Shown: one piece after another, positions 6,463 through 16,829 of the stretch
Numbering within the stretch: position 1 is the stretch's first letter
Layout: each line of letters starts with the position of its first letter
Virus record (IMG/VR): IMGVR_UViG_3300010379_000067
Span: 1 to 21,976 of that record
DNA length: 21,976 bases
Strand: one strand, 5' to 3'
From: a virus
Made by a program: the position numbers and the translations under genes
The notes under the pieces: generated by a model
What the model was told of the DNA's origin: nothing
Database searches by the model: none
The model's input: only the letters and a program-made list of their open reading frames with translations

Positions 6463-6893
6463 GCAGCCGCTTTTCGGTACACTCCCGCTTCGATGTTGTC
6501 CAGGATGCGCTCCCCTGGTGGATCATGCTGGACGAAGGGCACTCCGGTGCCATATTTGACCAGGAAAGCGGAACCGAAGTAATCAAAGCTCCGCCCAGGG
6601 GCGGGCGCGTAGGTGATGCCGCCCGCGATGGCTTCCCTGTACCGTTTCCAGGCCTCACTGTTCCGAAAGCGGCAGTGAACCATCATGTGGCAGAGGTAGC
6701 ACATGGGGAACGCGAAGATGTGGGGCCCGAACGGCTCACTGTAGTCTTCGCAGTGGTAGTCGAGCGGGCCTTCCGTCTGATCGCACGCGCAGCACTTGCT
6801 GGCGGGCGCTTGCCGCCCGGCTTTGATTTCAGCCTTAGCCCAGACCCAGGACCGTTGCCGCAGCTCACCAGAGAAGCCGTTGTAGGAATTCAT
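6459..6893 (-). CDS. HNH-like zinc-binding protein
   Basis: In this 144-residue protein one zinc pair is CCAC (34-37) and the second is CYLCHMMVH (65-73). Between them, PLDYHCEDYSEPFGPH carries the His-rich strand of an HNH fold. Phage HNH proteins beside terminase genes can stimulate cutting by the terminase; this one sits directly before the small subunit, overlapping both neighbours by four bases. The canonical second His/Asn of the active site is not obvious, since HCED replaces the usual HH, so catalysis is uncertain and a purely structural zinc finger is possible. Codons for FRNS contain one TTTCGGAACA motif. Confidence 0.68.
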   Translation of the reverse strand: MNSYNGFSGELRQRSWVWAKAEIKAGRQAPASKCCACDQTEGPLDYHCEDYSEPFGPHIFAFPMCYLCHMMVHCRFRNSEAWKRYREAIAGGITYAPAPGRSFDYFGSAFLVKYGTGVPFVQHDPPGERILDNIEAGVYRKAAA

Positions 6894-7495
6894 GCCCGGC
6901 CTCCGGTCTCTCGCGGCGTCCAGGCCCGCGAGTATTTGTAGCTGTCCAGGTTTTTGTTCTTGAAGACGTTCTCCTGGGAGAGCAACTCGATTTCGTCAAG
7001 GGTCGCACCGATCTCGCCGGCAATCTCAGCCGGGTCCATGTGGTACTGGTTGAGGAGCCGCCGCACTACGTCACTCATGCGAACGGCAACGTGCGCACCC
7101 TTCGCTCGGTTCATCCGAATTGTCAGTAGCATGGCGTGTGGGCGGTCCACGTTTATTATGCAGCACGGCACCAGGCCCTTGTACTGCTTTCGGAACGCCT
7201 CGCTGTCCAGCGAGAGCCGCCAGCGGTGGAAGCCGTCAATGATGATCGAGTCCGGGTTTATCAGGATCGGCTGGACCCAGCCCGTGGTGAGGATCGAGCG
7301 CTCAAGCAACCGCAGCTCCGGTGTGAAAACCACGTTCGGGTTATAGTCGTTCGCGTCCAGCTTGTTCGCGTTCATCCAGACCACCTTGTCAATCGGCTCC
7401 ACGCGGACATCGGTGCTTAAAATTTTACGGGGTGCGAAATTCTTTACGGGGGTGTGAAGAATTTCGCACCCTTTTCCGCTCTTGACACGCTTCAT
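6890..7495 (-). CDS. ParB-like nuclease/CTPase-domain protein (IbrB-like)
   Basis: This 201-residue protein has a ParB N-terminal (ParB/sulfiredoxin fold) domain. Diagnostic parts are LDANDYNPN (47-54), WVQPILIN (73-80) and IIDGFHRWR (85-93), the nucleotide-binding strand-turn of the family. There is no ParB-type DNA-binding or partition partner, so chromosome partition is unlikely. It follows a PAPS-reductase-like gene, the same pair as E. coli IbrA/IbrB, whose biochemistry is unresolved. The start overlaps the upstream stop (ATGA) with AAGG in front. Residues 8-22 are encoded by a large inverted repeat, so the start region may be under hairpin control; a start at Met41 is the alternative. 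Confidence 0.85.
   Translation of the reverse strand: MKRVKSGKGCEILHTPVKNFAPRKILSTDVRVEPIDKVVWMNANKLDANDYNPNVVFTPELRLLERSILTTGWVQPILINPDSIIIDGFHRWRLSLDSEAFRKQYKGLVPCCIINVDRPHAMLLTIRMNRAKGAHVAVRMSDVVRRLLNQYHMDPAEIAGEIGATLDEIELLSQENVFKNKNLDSYKYSRAWTPRETGGRA
7430..7471 (-). repeat. 15-bp inverted repeat in the 5' end of the ParB-like gene
   Basis: Arms 7430-7444 and 7457-7471 (GGGTGCGAAATTCTT and complement) are perfect over 15 bp with a 12-base loop. In the transcript this forms a strong hairpin about 25 bases after the start codon. A short A/T stretch follows, so attenuation or mRNA processing between the PAPS-reductase-like gene and the downstream genes is possible. Confidence 0.7.
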
Positions 7496-8565
7496 GACAC
7501 CTTCCTCCGGCCCATTGGCAGGATCTCACGTTTGTACGCGCCGCTCATCATCTGTTTCAGAACATGCTGCGGCGGATAGGCTCCCGGTTGACGCCTGGCG
7601 CGGGTCATGACGCTCCGCAGCCGGTCCAGCGCCAGGGTTTGCTGCTTCTCATCCACCATGAATTCGATGACCCACGCCCGCACTCCCTCAAAGGTTTCCC
7701 CATAGCGCTTCACGATGGCTTTGCGGTCCATGTCGCTGTAATAGCGCTCGTGGGTGCGCATCTCGGGGAACACGTCGATGACCTGCTGGTACAGTGTGGG
7801 CGCGAACAGCTTCAGGTGATCGAAGCGCTTCGAGGTTTCCGCGTGGAGCGGAGTTGACACGCGCAGCGCCACGTTCGCCCACATCTGAGCGTCGTAGAGT
7901 GGGCAGTAATCAATGTGGTGCTCCATGAAGAACTTGAACACGTCGTTCTCTTCCCAATCGTAAAGCGGCTTGCAGAGCATGATGTTCGCGGGCGCGGGTC
8001 CGGTGCCAGCCGTGAACGGTGACGTGAGGTAATTTTCGTTGAGCTTGTTGACGCTGGCGCGAAAACGCATCAGCGACTCGGCCGCCCGGATGCCGGTCAC
8101 GCAAGCGATCTTCCCCCGGTAGAGCTTCGCCACTTCCGCGTCCATGTTGTACTGGTCAAAAATCCTGTCGTCACCTGGTGGTAGTGTGAGCGCCCAAGGC
8201 GGAGCCTGGCGCACGTGTCGGCGGTTCGGGTCCCATTGCACATAGCTGCGCGAGACGCCCAGGACGTACTCAGTGCTCTTGAGAGGGTAGGCATACCAGG
8301 TCATGTTGACCCAAGGCAGGCGGCGGTACTTATCCACGAAGTCAATCACCGGGTCCGGGATCAGCTCCTCATCCCGGAACACCACGTTCACGACTTTCTG
8401 CCCGAACTCTTTGGCGATCTCGCGGGTGAGGTGGAGCACGGCCAGGCTGTCTTTTCCGCCCGAGAACATCACCGCGATGGTGTCAAAGATTTCAAACGTG
8501 TGGCGGAGCCGGGCGCGGGCCTCGGTCAGCACATCCGTCTCCAGGTAGTGCCTAACTCTTGCCAT
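7492..8565 (-). CDS. PAPS-reductase-like ATP pyrophosphatase (IbrA/DndC-related superfamily)
   Basis: This 357-residue enzyme is of the adenine-nucleotide alpha-hydrolase fold. The PP-loop is MFSGGKDS (33-40); VTGIRAAESLMRFR (156-169) is the second conserved block, and MLCKPLYDWEENDV (196-209) the third. The redox motif ECGxH of true assimilatory PAPS reductases is absent, and only three Cys are seen (155, 198 and one in DYCPLYD), so no DndC-type iron-sulfur set is apparent. It probably activates a substrate with ATP rather than making sulfite. ParB-like genes lie on both sides with short overlaps, implying one pathway; nucleic-acid modification or takeover of host sulfur chemistry are candidates. 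Confidence 0.88.
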   Translation of the reverse strand: MARVRHYLETDVLTEARARLRHTFEIFDTIAVMFSGGKDSLAVLHLTREIAKEFGQKVVNVVFRDEELIPDPVIDFVDKYRRLPWVNMTWYAYPLKSTEYVLGVSRSYVQWDPNRRHVRQAPPWALTLPPGDDRIFDQYNMDAEVAKLYRGKIACVTGIRAAESLMRFRASVNKLNENYLTSPFTAGTGPAPANIMLCKPLYDWEENDVFKFFMEHHIDYCPLYDAQMWANVALRVSTPLHAETSKRFDHLKLFAPTLYQQVIDVFPEMRTHERYYSDMDRKAIVKRYGETFEGVRAWVIEFMVDEKQQTLALDRLRSVMTRARRQPGAYPPQHVLKQMMSGAYKREILPMGRRKVS

Positions 8566-9190
8566 AGCGGCCCTTCTTCACAAAACTCGCGAGGCGTGCG
8601 CCCAGCGTATCGCCAGGGTGTTTCTTTTTCAGAAAACTGAGGAAGGCAAACCACAGCTCTTGCTGGGCCGCGTTCTCAAAAATGATGTTGTAGCTGATAA
8701 CCGGAACACCCATGCCGCCGCCGCGTCTGCCCTCTGCAGCTCCGCCGCTGTCCATGTCGGCCAGCAGCCGGTCCAGCTCCTCCTGGCCGATGCCGGTTGT
8801 GCTCAAGTCACCGTGCTCCGCCGCCAGGGCTTGCAATTCACCGCGCAGCAGATCCTCATCCCAATCGGACTCAAGCCCGACCTGGTTGTCAGCGATGATA
8901 TAGGCCCGCTTCTGGGCGGCGGTAAGGTGGGTCAGCTCCACCACTGGCACTTTCGCCATCCCCAGCTTCTCTGCGGCCTTCATCGCGCCGTGTCCGGCCA
9001 GGATGCCGCCCTTTTCATCCACCAGGATCGGCCGCGTGAAGCCGAATTCCAGGATGAGCCCGGCCAGCTTGTCAATCTGCTCGTCGCTGTGAGTCCGCGG
9101 ATTTTTGTCGTAGGGCTTCAGCCTGGCCAGCGGCCAGAACTGTAGCTTCTTCCCCATGTGAACCTTCGCGTTGACTTTCTCAGTCTTCAT
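8552..9190 (-). CDS. ParB-like protein of the phage modification-cassette type
   Basis: This 212-residue protein has a ParB N-terminal domain: ARLKPYDKNPRTHSDEQI (22-39), GGILAGHGAMKAAEKLG (61-77) and YIIADNQVGLESDWD (97-111). This version is usually found joined or next to DNA methyltransferases; no methyltransferase is present here. A distinct C-terminal domain (YNIIFENAAQQELWFAFLSFLKKKHPG) is shared by phage members. It opens the left operon after a 380-bp spacer, with GGAGG six bases before the ATG and direct repeats just upstream. It ends with TAG and overlaps the PAPS-reductase-like gene by 14 bases. Confidence 0.88.
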   Translation of the reverse strand: MKTEKVNAKVHMGKKLQFWPLARLKPYDKNPRTHSDEQIDKLAGLILEFGFTRPILVDEKGGILAGHGAMKAAEKLGMAKVPVVELTHLTAAQKRAYIIADNQVGLESDWDEDLLRGELQALAAEHGDLSTTGIGQEELDRLLADMDSGGAAEGRRGGGMGVPVISYNIIFENAAQQELWFAFLSFLKKKHPGDTLGARLASFVKKGRYGKS

Positions 9191-9207: not shown

Positions 9208-9232
9208 AGTGGCTAGTTAAAGTGGCTAGTTA
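9208..9232 (-). promoter_or_regulatory. 12-bp direct repeat upstream of the ParB-like operon (possible operator)
   Basis: AGTGGCTAGTTA occurs twice with one base between (9208-9219 and 9221-9232). On the coding strand it reads TAACTAGCCACT and ends 18 bases before the start codon at 9190, in the leader. A 13-bp pitch places a bound protein on nearly the same helix face. The adjacent HTH gene product (9570-9956) is a candidate binder. Confidence 0.5.
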
Positions 9233-9367: not shown

Positions 9368-9391
9368 TGGTGTGTTGGTGTGTTGGTGTGT
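9368..9391. repeat. Three tandem copies of TGGTGTGT
   Basis: Perfect 8-bp units, three in a row, in the spacer upstream of the ParB-like operon, followed by more TG-rich sequence to about 9450. It could be slippage-prone microsatellite DNA; no function is evident. Confidence 0.6.
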
Positions 9392-13536: not shown

Positions 13537-14211
13537 CTACCGCTGGGAATTGTACGCCCTATCCAGCTCCTTGTCCCACACTTGCGAATAAGTGTCGATG
13601 GCCACGCCGAAGAAGTCATAGCTGGCCTTCAGTTTGGGACGGTCCACAAACAAGTACAGCGCCATCACTACGTCTCCAACCTTCTGAAACAGTCCACGCG
13701 GAACGGTGCCGTGCGCCTCTCGCGGGAGCGAGAATACACCGCCGTCTTGGGCGCTAATGAGCTGGGTTGTGCCGTCTTTCAGAACACGCTGGGTCAACTG
13801 GATTCGAGAGAGCTGGTAGGCTGCGGTCACGGGATCAGTGAATGCCGGGCGGGCTGCACTGCCGGTGATGGGCACGCCCACAGACTTGCCGGACGCGGGC
13901 TCTTTGTAGCCGCCCTCGACGAACTCAGCCAGGAGCACGCGGGCCTTTGTGTTATCCAGCGCGATCTCCGCGAACACCTCTTGCTGTGGACCGATGCCCT
14001 TGAACACCTTGGCAAAGGCTGTGATCTTCACCAGGCGGTACATAAACTCATTCTTGCGGATGGTGAAACTGCGGTCGAGCTGGGCGCGCTCCTCACGCTG
14101 GATTTCAAGCGCCGTTCGATTCATGGCCGTGGCCACGGCATACGCCAGGCGCTTCTCCTGAGCGATCAGGTTGGCGGTGAGGCCCGAGATGTCAATATCG
14201 AACTTAATCAC
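13537..14211 (-). CDS. Virion morphogenesis / minor tail protein Z-like
   Basis: A 224-residue protein. The N-terminal region AYAVATAMNRTALEIQREERAQL followed by SFTIRKNEFMYRLVKIT, and the central ARVLLAEFVEGGYKEPASG, resemble phage minor tail protein Z and related tail-completion proteins, which cap or join the tail tube. That placement would be odd: it lies among small early-type genes, far from head and tail genes, and no other tail gene is near. The GTG start overlaps the upstream gene by eight bases; the stop is TAG. Assignment is by pattern only, and a homologous fold with another use is possible. Confidence 0.6.
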   Translation of the reverse strand: MIKFDIDISGLTANLIAQEKRLAYAVATAMNRTALEIQREERAQLDRSFTIRKNEFMYRLVKITAFAKVFKGIGPQQEVFAEIALDNTKARVLLAEFVEGGYKEPASGKSVGVPITGSAARPAFTDPVTAAYQLSRIQLTQRVLKDGTTQLISAQDGGVFSLPREAHGTVPRGLFQKVGDVVMALYLFVDRPKLKASYDFFGVAIDTYSQVWDKELDRAYNSQR

Positions 14212-15883: not shown

Positions 15884-16065
15884 GCTGCCTCACGCTTTCG
15901 GAACAGTTCACGTTGCTGCCAGCGCTCGTCGTCTATGTCATCCGCTGGCCGGGCCGGATACCTACTCGGGATCGGATTCGCCCACGCCCAGCTCCCCGGC
16001 TCACCCTCGGAAACGAACGCGGGGCGCGGTACTTTACGATCACGAGGATCAATCTCTTGGGTCAG
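15880..16065 (-). CDS. 61-residue protein with probable CTG start
   Basis: A small open frame that has no ATG, GTG or TTG. It begins with a CTG that overlaps the replication gene's stop as CTGA, in the same manner as the ATGA overlaps throughout the operon, and ends with an ATGA overlap onto the next gene. The peptide (LTQEIDPRDRKVPRP, then PGSWAWANPIPSRYPARP, then ERWQQRELFRKREAA) looks protein-like. Translation would come by coupling to the upstream gene. The alternative is that this 180-bp stretch is untranslated. Confidence 0.6.
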   Translation of the reverse strand: MTQEIDPRDRKVPRPAFVSEGEPGSWAWANPIPSRYPARPADDIDDERWQQRELFRKREAA

Positions 16066-16829
16066 GCTTCACGTCTTTCCTGCCCGGTGTTGGTGTTGGT
16101 TGTGCTCCTGGGTTTGTAGCGCCCATGCCCGTCTGGGATCACGAGAAGGTCTCCCCAATCGCGTTCCTCATGGGAAGGTTTTGGGGTTGCGGTTGGTGTT
16201 GATCTTTCGAGAAGTGTTCCATGTGGAACGTTTTGCACAGTTTCCACAGCTCCCCCCTCACACTCCCCCCTTTCCCCAACTGCCGACGATGACGAGGGTG
16301 TCAACGTCTGAGAATCTAAGTTCTTTATTTCTTTACTTCTAACTTCTAACTTCTGAGCGTCGCTTCGAGCGACGGCGCGGGCGACGCTGGGAGCGACGCT
16401 TGACGGAAACCGACCCAAAATGTGGTCTGTGGTGTCCAGCCAGTTCGCGATCTTCGCTTGAGCGTCGCTTGGAGCGTCGCTGCCAGCGTCGCTTGGAGCG
16501 ACGCCCTTCCGTTTCGCGTTCGCGGCGTTTGCGCCCTTGCGCGCCCGCTCTGTCACAGCGTTGTCACGCTCCTGTCCCACGTCGAATAATCGATCAGCTT
16601 TTTGGACGAAGAATTGCAGCACGGAATCCAGCGAAGCCCGGACCTGGCTCTCCGATCGCATGGTCCTGCGGGCGATCTCGGACGTGTCCACGGGGCAGGA
16701 GCCTTCCAGGCAGCACACGCACCTCATTCTCTGCAGGAGCACGGCGGCGGCGTCCGTGAGCCGGTCAATCCGCGGATCGGTGAGGTAGGTGCTGGCCCAG
16801 AATTTGAACCACAGTTTTTCGTCGGCCAT
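16062..16829 (-). CDS. Replication initiator-like protein containing the candidate origin
   Basis: In this 255-residue protein the N-terminus (DEKLWFKFWASTYLTDPRIDRLTDAAAVLLQRM, then DTSEIARRTMRSESQVRASLDSVLQFF) is the winged-helix domain of phage replication initiator or primosomal loader proteins (lambda O / DnaT-like). A low-complexity linker made of SDA repeats (110-125) and a variable Ser/Thr-rich tail follow. As in lambda O, the linker region of the gene carries direct repeats that could be the origin the protein binds. ATG overlaps the upstream stop by one base (TGATG). No helicase or helicase loader was recognised beside it. Confidence 0.8.
   Translation of the reverse strand: MADEKLWFKFWASTYLTDPRIDRLTDAAAVLLQRMRCVCCLEGSCPVDTSEIARRTMRSESQVRASLDSVLQFFVQKADRLFDVGQERDNAVTERARKGANAANAKRKGVAPSDAGSDAPSDAQAKIANWLDTTDHILGRFPSSVAPSVARAVARSDAQKLEVRSKEIKNLDSQTLTPSSSSAVGERGECEGGAVETVQNVPHGTLLERSTPTATPKPSHEERDWGDLLVIPDGHGRYKPRSTTNTNTGQERREA
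16335..16355. repeat. Three tandem 7-bp repeats in AT-rich DNA
   Basis: ACTTCTA, ACTTCTA, ACTTCTG in direct succession beside the iteron block; a candidate unwinding element. Confidence 0.75.
16356..16400. repeat. Iteron block A (four 12-bp-spaced AGCGWCGCT units)
   Basis: Units start at 16356, 16368, 16380 and 16392. The first and last are perfect; the second and third have one or two changes. They encode part of the initiator's tail (VARAVARSDA). Confidence 0.7.
16461..16505. repeat. Iteron block B (four 12-bp-spaced AGCGWCGCT units)
   Basis: Units start at 16461, 16473, 16485 and 16497. Three are identical (AGCGTCGCT) and the fourth is AGCGACGCC. They encode the repeated Ser-Asp-Ala linker of the initiator. 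Because 12 bp equals four codons, a pure protein repeat is the alternative reading. Confidence 0.7.

What the first reader, a model, noticed from the sequence alone, without database searches (positions are those of the whole stretch)
16310..16505. Candidate replication origin with 4+4 iterons of 12 bp and three 7-bp repeats inside the initiator gene
Eight AGCGWCGCT-like units fall at exact 12-bp pitch in two blocks, and three perfect tandem heptamers sit in an adjoining AT-rich tract. The heptamers break the codon frame, so they are not a protein repeat. Lambda has four iterons plus an AT-rich tract inside gene O. The double array and short, nearly palindromic units differ from lambda.
Basis: partly seen in the sequence, partly recalled or inferred. 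Interest (0 to 1): 0.7.

Follow-up and report, generated by a model that had tools for sequence, protein, structure and literature searches.

The report
Phage replication origin inside initiator gene
This virus of bacteria very probably starts copying its DNA at a cluster of short repeats hidden inside the gene for its own start protein, as phage lambda does, but with repeats half as long; relatives keep the layout while rewriting the repeat letters.

Summary
Eight AGCGWCGCT-like 9-mers lie at exact 12-bp pitch in two blocks of four (16356-16400, 16461-16505), beside a frame-breaking heptamer tract that holds the AT-richest 40 bp of the 22-kb contig. All lie inside one ORF (16062-16829, minus strand). 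The repeats are constrained as DNA, not only as peptide: 0 of 50,000 synonymous recodings come close.

The ORF's N-terminus is a confidently predicted winged helix, closest in structure to phage DUF1376/replication proteins. Two near relatives (L082, L083) keep the layout in the same register but with different repeat sequences. Between them, all six core substitutions in three units change in concert, including the inverted unit. Across 30 wider relatives, including the isolate Pam1, 12-bp units abut purine-rich CAGAA heptamers at a common junction. In Pam1 and Paracoccus phage Pkon1 the gene lies next to DnaB helicase.

Best reading: a lambda-like (O/ori-lambda, SPP1 oriL) origin embedded in the initiator gene, with iterons half lambda's length. 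It works like lambda ori, but the protein is not shown to belong to the O family. No function was tested. A family-wide test of iteron/recognition-helix covariation was null; that idea rests on one pair.

The parts
16062..16829 (-). Candidate replication initiator gene, 255 aa, which contains the whole candidate origin
   Evidence: ORF; N-terminus joins a phage winged-helix family that includes PHROG 'replication initiation protein' members; homologues in L082, L083
16509..16829 (-). Winged-helix DNA-binding domain, residues 1-107
   Evidence: AlphaFold2 pLDDT 88.4: H26-42, H49-55, H60-73, wing E74-77/E80-83, H84-107; Foldseek viral hits DUF1376 proteins, best E 2e-6
16611..16652 (-). Predicted recognition helix, residues 60-73 (wing follows at 16581-16610)
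   Evidence: L082/L083 amino-acid changes concentrate here and in the wing
16461..16505 (-). Iteron block 1, far from the AT-rich tract: four 9-bp units at 12-bp pitch
16356..16400 (-). Iteron block 2, next to the AT-rich tract: four 9-bp units at 12-bp pitch, last unit flipped, abutting CAGAAG
   Evidence: same register in L082, L083 and wider family
16335..16355 (-). Heptamer repeats (CAGAAGT)(TAGAAGT)(TAGAAGT), frame-breaking
   Evidence: family-wide 7-bp periodicity
16313..16352 (.). AT-rich tract, candidate DNA unwinding element; lowest-GC 40-mer of the contig (22.5%)
16231..16239 (+). DnaA-box-like TTTTGCACA, the only TTWTNCACA in the window; same place in G001 (role inferred)
16216..16229 (.). 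Palindrome GTTCCATGTGGAAC, unique in the window; same place in G001, near-version in L083 (role unknown)
   Evidence: sequences

Best explanation
The region is a theta-type replication origin embedded in the gene of its own initiator. Shown by sequence: two blocks of four 9-bp, nearly palindromic iterons at 12-bp pitch; a fixed junction to a purine/AT-rich heptamer tract; a winged-helix N-terminus encoded just upstream. Inferred: copies of the initiator bind the iterons through helix 60-73 and the wing and form a multi-protomer complex. That complex melts the adjacent AT-rich tract and recruits the host DnaB helicase, since none is recognisable in the three related contigs. The block next to the tract is probably the essential one; the far block probably raises local initiator concentration or stabilises the complex. 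The DnaA-like box and palindrome further along may be accessory sites. Because origin and initiator share one gene, they are inherited together and the iteron sequence can be replaced together with the protein.
For: DNA-level constraint: synonymous tests. Concerted change between L082 and L083: GTAGTTC,GTAGTTC,GAACTAC versus GCAGTGC,GCAGTGC,GCACTGC; all six core differences fall at two equivalent positions in all three units, the inverted one included, although the codons and amino acids differ there. If six substitutions fell at random in those 21 bp, all three units staying identical has a chance of about 5e-6 (my arithmetic: 189/(C(21,6) x 729)). Fixed register: window, L082, L083 and many distant relatives align as 12-mers ending at CAGAA. 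Over 30 anchored genes self-identity upstream of the junction peaks at lag 12 (0.43 against 0.39 synonymous-shuffled, z 4.7; other lags about 0.20-0.33). Unanchored over 38 genes: peaks at 7, 14, 12, 24. Odd 9-bp palindromes enriched in this region (z 3.7), not in the N-terminal control (z -0.7). AT-richest 40 bp of the contig. Winged-helix model, structural hits to DUF1376, replication-protein and replisome-organiser N-termini, weak PDB hits to DnaD-N and RepA. Relative L090 hits PHROG replication initiation families and DnaT. In Pam1 and Pkon1 the homologous gene follows DnaB. Precedents: lambda ori in O (PMC7466680, PMC3349717), SPP1 oriL in gene 38 (PMC6316719).
Against: No binding, unwinding or replication data. 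The window protein has no significant Pfam or PHROG hit, and its link to the wide family rests on weak sequence similarity (L090 23% identity), an HMM whose seeds included the targets, and fold. GC skew gives no origin signal. Only two close relatives were found. The lambda-like hairpin after the tract, common in the wide family, is absent in the window. Family genes are not phylogenetically independent, so pooled z-scores are optimistic.
Confidence: 0.85

Rival explanations
1. The array is a protein- or DNA-binding control site (operator, handcuffing or copy-control iterons) for the initiator or a repressor, and replication starts elsewhere.
For: Iteron arrays can serve control as well as initiation; the far block in the window is separated from the AT-rich tract.
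Against: The junction to a melting-prone tract is kept across the family and the tract is the AT-richest 40 bp; no other iteron array in the window.
Confidence: 0.09
2. The repeats are only a low-complexity peptide linker (SDA/SVA repeats) with no DNA function.
For: The pitch is four codons and block 1 encodes PSDAGSDAPSDA in frame.
Against: Synonymous tests; codons skewed to GCT, AGC and GTC in the array; the heptamers break frame; inverted units co-vary between L082 and L083; relatives lose the peptide and keep the DNA layout.
Confidence: 0.02
3. A partition or centromere-like site for plasmid-like maintenance of the prophage.
For: A ParB_N-domain protein is encoded at 8552-9190; palindrome 16216-16229 resembles a parS half-site arrangement.
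Against: No ParA was noticed among the ORFs; the ParB_N gene sits with a PAPS-reductase gene, suggesting another role; the G001 relative carries an integrase-like ORF at 38386-39804, recognised by eye only; repeats sit with the winged-helix gene in phages generally.
Confidence: 0.03

Closest known systems
Phage lambda O / ori-lambda (PMC3349717, PMC6022878, PMC7466680)
   Same: Origin inside the initiator gene; tandem symmetric iterons encoded just after the DNA-binding domain; adjacent AT-rich tract of about 38 bp; no own DnaB
   Different: Iterons 9 bp at 12-bp pitch (18-bp units in lambda, each bound by two O); 4+4 in two blocks; frame-breaking heptamers in the tract; no O-family Pfam hit; no P-like loader found
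SPP1 gp38 / oriL (PMC6316719)
   Same: Direct repeats plus AT-rich unwinding element inside the initiator gene
   Different: SPP1 has a second origin, oriR, and its own loader and helicase; none found here
Phage DUF1376-type / WFKFYPxDW winged-helix proteins, e.g. Pam1 gp56 (annotated hypothetical)
   Same: Same predicted fold; same layout, 9-bp odd palindromes at 12 bp (Pam1 CCTAATAGG), CAGAAGC heptamers; gene beside DnaB in Pam1 and Pkon1
   Different: Window clade has a different C-terminus, no hairpin after the tract, no adjacent helicase and about 20% identity
Iteron plasmid origins (RepA, pi, pSC101 type)
   Same: Iterons, AT-rich tract, DnaA-like box, winged-helix initiator
   Different: Origin lies within rather than upstream of the initiator gene; no Rep Pfam hit; fold match weak (4pta, E 0.17)

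Membership tests
Lambda-type in-gene origin (by layout) | Origin lies within the initiator coding sequence | tested here: met
   All elements within ORF 16062-16829
Lambda-type in-gene origin (by layout) | Several tandem symmetric iterons | tested here: met
   4+4 units, near-palindromic
Lambda-type in-gene origin (by layout) | Iterons of about 18 bp | tested here: not met
   Units are 9 bp at 12-bp pitch; lambda value from PMC3349717
Lambda-type in-gene origin (by layout) | Adjacent AT-rich tract | tested here: met
   22.5% GC at 16313-16352
Lambda-type in-gene origin (by layout) | Initiator binds iterons and melts the tract; replication starts there | not testable with these tools
   Needs bench work
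Lambda O protein family | Sequence homology to O (Pfam/PHROG O-like models) | tested here: not met
   No O-family hit for window, L082 or L083; distant relatives L086 and L094 reach O-like PHROGs only weakly
Lambda O/P module | Dedicated helicase loader next to the initiator | tested here: inconclusive
   No DnaB or IstB/DnaC-like gene in G000-G002; lambda P itself not searched; the window is a partial contig
DUF1376 / WFKFYP winged-helix phage initiators | Winged-helix N-terminus of this family | tested here: met
   Model and Foldseek best E 2e-6 to DUF1376 proteins; family alignment A4
DUF1376 / WFKFYP winged-helix phage initiators | Curated family model hit (Pfam DUF1376) | tested here: not met
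   Not hit at E 0.1
DUF1376 / WFKFYP winged-helix phage initiators | 12-bp units abutting CAGAA heptamers in the gene | tested here: met
Iteron plasmid Rep proteins | Rep_3/RepA-type sequence or fold | tested here: inconclusive
   No Pfam hit; weak fold match 4pta E 0.17

The most novel reading that the evidence does not exclude
A widespread but undescribed class of phage origin: unannotated winged-helix initiators that carry, inside their own gene, short odd-palindromic iterons at 12-bp (sometimes 11-bp) pitch fused at a fixed junction to purine-rich heptamers. The iteron sequence would be rewritten in concert with the recognition helix, giving a natural collection of matched initiator/iteron pairs from which a recognition code could be read.
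Probability: 0.35. Interest if true: 0.7.

Novelty: new variant of a known kind. Interest (0 to 1): 0.5.

Why it matters
It adds a mechanistically readable origin to phages known only from metagenomes and predicts the function of genes now annotated 'hypothetical', such as Pam1 gp56 and Pkon1 p29. Because origin and initiator are one gene, pairs such as L082/L083 let one ask how an initiator and all copies of its binding site change specificity together, a standing question for iteron replicons. Lambda-like origins are textbook, so the surprise lies in the short, fixed-register, freely re-lettered units.

Tried and rejected
GC skew as an origin marker: uninformative in G000-G002 (nearly monotonic), and not at the gene in Pam1 or Pkon1. 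Family-wide partial Mantel test of iteron similarity against recognition-helix or wing similarity given the rest of the domain: null (r -0.06, p 0.73; r 0.07, p 0.25; 24 genes), so the L082/L083 enrichment (9 of 17 changes in 24 of 103 residues, Fisher p 0.0035) stays a single-pair hint found after looking. Hairpin after the tract: strong in several relatives (L168, L187, L095) but absent in window, L082 and L083. Direct searches for the initiator in viral, genome and phage collections found nothing; relatives came through the neighbouring nuclease gene. TerL relatives carried no initiator homologue. The lag-7 z of 10.5 is inflated by the anchor pattern; the unanchored one search is the fair value. 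One search used a block 2 start off by one; its unit simulation is superseded.

Full report
What is there. The window is a 21,976-base virus record, probably a fragment, coding almost entirely on the minus strand: head genes (GpA terminase, lambda-type portal, S49 peptidase), an ERF recombinase and a nuclease, and between them an ORF of 255 aa at 16062-16829. Eight 9-bp units like AGCGWCGCT sit in that ORF at exact 12-bp pitch, four at 16356-16400 and four at 16461-16505, the two blocks starting 105 bp apart. Next to the first block come three AGAAGT-type heptamers (16335-16355) in the AT-richest 40 bp of the whole contig, 22.5% GC against 59%. Dinucleotide shuffles give 0.07 spaced pairs where six are seen.

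The repeats are kept as DNA. The 12-bp pitch is four codons, so a peptide repeat had to be excluded. Recoding the units with synonymous codons at the phage's own usage gives 25.6 mismatches to the consensus on average; the real sequence has 4, and none of 50,000 recodings reaches that. Within-gene codon shuffles give the same answer (45 and 19 repeated 8-mer pairs against 5.6 and 2.8). Ala GCT, Ser AGC and Val GTC are enriched in the array against the rest of the gene (Fisher p 0.010, 0.005, 0.005). The heptamer breaks the codon frame.

Close relatives. Searching with the neighbouring nuclease gene found two contigs whose next genes include homologues of the ORF (L082, 226 aa; L083, 302 aa). 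Protein identity to the window is about a third, but the layout is the same. Reading 12-mers back from the junction CAGAA, the window gives TCAAGCGTCGCT CCCAGCGTCGCC CGCGCCGTCGCT CGAAGCGACGCT; L082 gives GATGGTAGTTCA AACGGTAGTTCG ATTCGAACTACT; L083 gives GATCGCAGTGCA AATGGCAGTGCC GTTCGCACTGCT. The 7-bp core ends at the same base before TCAGAA in all three, and the last unit is flipped in all three. From L082 to L083 the core changes from GTAGTTC to GCAGTGC in both direct units and, as reverse complement, in the inverted unit, where the reading frame gives other amino acids. Peptide selection cannot do that. L083, like the window, has a second block upstream.

The wider family. The N-terminus joins phage proteins beginning WFKFYPxDW. 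One member, L090, hits PHROG replication initiation families and a DnaT domain; another sits beside DnaB in Pseudanabaena phage Pam1, and the Paracoccus phage Pkon1 gene likewise. Over 38 such genes, self-similarity beyond synonymous shuffles peaks at lags 7, 14, 12 and 24. Over 30 genes anchored at the CAGAA junction, upstream self-identity is 0.43 at lag 12 and about 0.20-0.33 at other lags. Nine-base odd palindromes are enriched there and not in the N-terminal codons. Examples: Pam1 CCTAATAGG, L168 AGGTGACCT, L181 AGCAGTGCT (11-bp pitch), L194 AGCAATGCT. The unit sequence differs between lineages while pitch and junction persist. These genes share ancestry, so the z-scores overstate independence.

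The protein. AlphaFold2 on the 29-sequence alignment gives a winged helix at pLDDT 88 with recognition helix 60-73 and a two-strand wing. Viral structural neighbours are DUF1376 proteins (best E 2e-6), with replication-protein and replisome-organiser N-termini lower down; PDB matches are weak but include DnaD-N and the RepA 'MDR initiator'. Amino-acid differences between L082 and L083 concentrate in helix and wing (9 of 17 in 24 of 103 residues, p 0.0035), while silent changes are evenly spread. The same idea tested across 24 family members gave nothing, so it stays a hint.

Mechanism. Initiator copies bind the iterons, the complex melts the adjacent AT-rich tract, and host DnaB is recruited; no DnaB or IstB-type gene was found in the three contigs. 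The binding, melting and recruitment steps are inferred from layout and from lambda and SPP1 (PMC7466680, PMC3349717, PMC6022878, PMC6316719). Beyond the tract, the only TTWTNCACA in the 22 kb (16231-16239) and a unique palindrome GTTCCATGTGGAAC (16216-16229) lie together; G001 has its only copies of both at the equivalent place. One such box per window is expected by chance (0.90), so the shared position is the point, and protein conservation (VETV..VPxGT) could explain it.

Verdict. It is a lambda-like origin in design, with short units and an initiator that is not an O-family member by the tests run here. Literature searches in the open PMC library found no description of this family's origins, but most subscription papers are not held there.

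Noticed in passing
window 16216-16253: Unique palindrome GTTCCATGTGGAAC beside the contig's only TTWTNCACA; same pair at the same place in G001, degenerate in L083. Could be DnaA- or parS-like, or just the conserved peptide VPxGT.
   Followed up: partly
window 6890-9190 (-): PAPS-reductase-domain gene between a ParB_N-domain gene (8552-9190) and a second gene (6890-7495) whose DNA matches mycobacteriophage genes annotated ParB-like; looks like a DNA-modification or sulfur-chemistry module rather than partition.
   Followed up: partly
L083 6540-6700: Between the two iteron blocks the L083 initiator carries an insert encoding a zinc-ribbon-like CPECGAG..CRTC motif, absent in L082.
   Followed up: no
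L092 3819-4592: Initiator-like gene with many TGATAACG copies, several inside the codons of the winged-helix domain itself, followed by AT-rich AGAATAGATAAGAATAG repeats.
   Followed up: no
L168, L187, L095 and other relatives, just after the heptamer tract: Strong hairpins follow the purine-rich tract in many relatives but not in the window clade; function unknown.
   Followed up: partly
window 13537-14211 (-): Gene without Pfam hit, conserved in L082 and L083 just downstream of the initiator module (MIKFDIDI..GL); function unclear.
   Followed up: no
window 9208-9232 and 9368-9391: Perfect tandem repeats, 13 bp (AGTGGCTAGTTAA, 1.9 copies) and 8 bp (TGGTGTGT, 3 copies), in a gene-poor stretch.
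   Followed up: no
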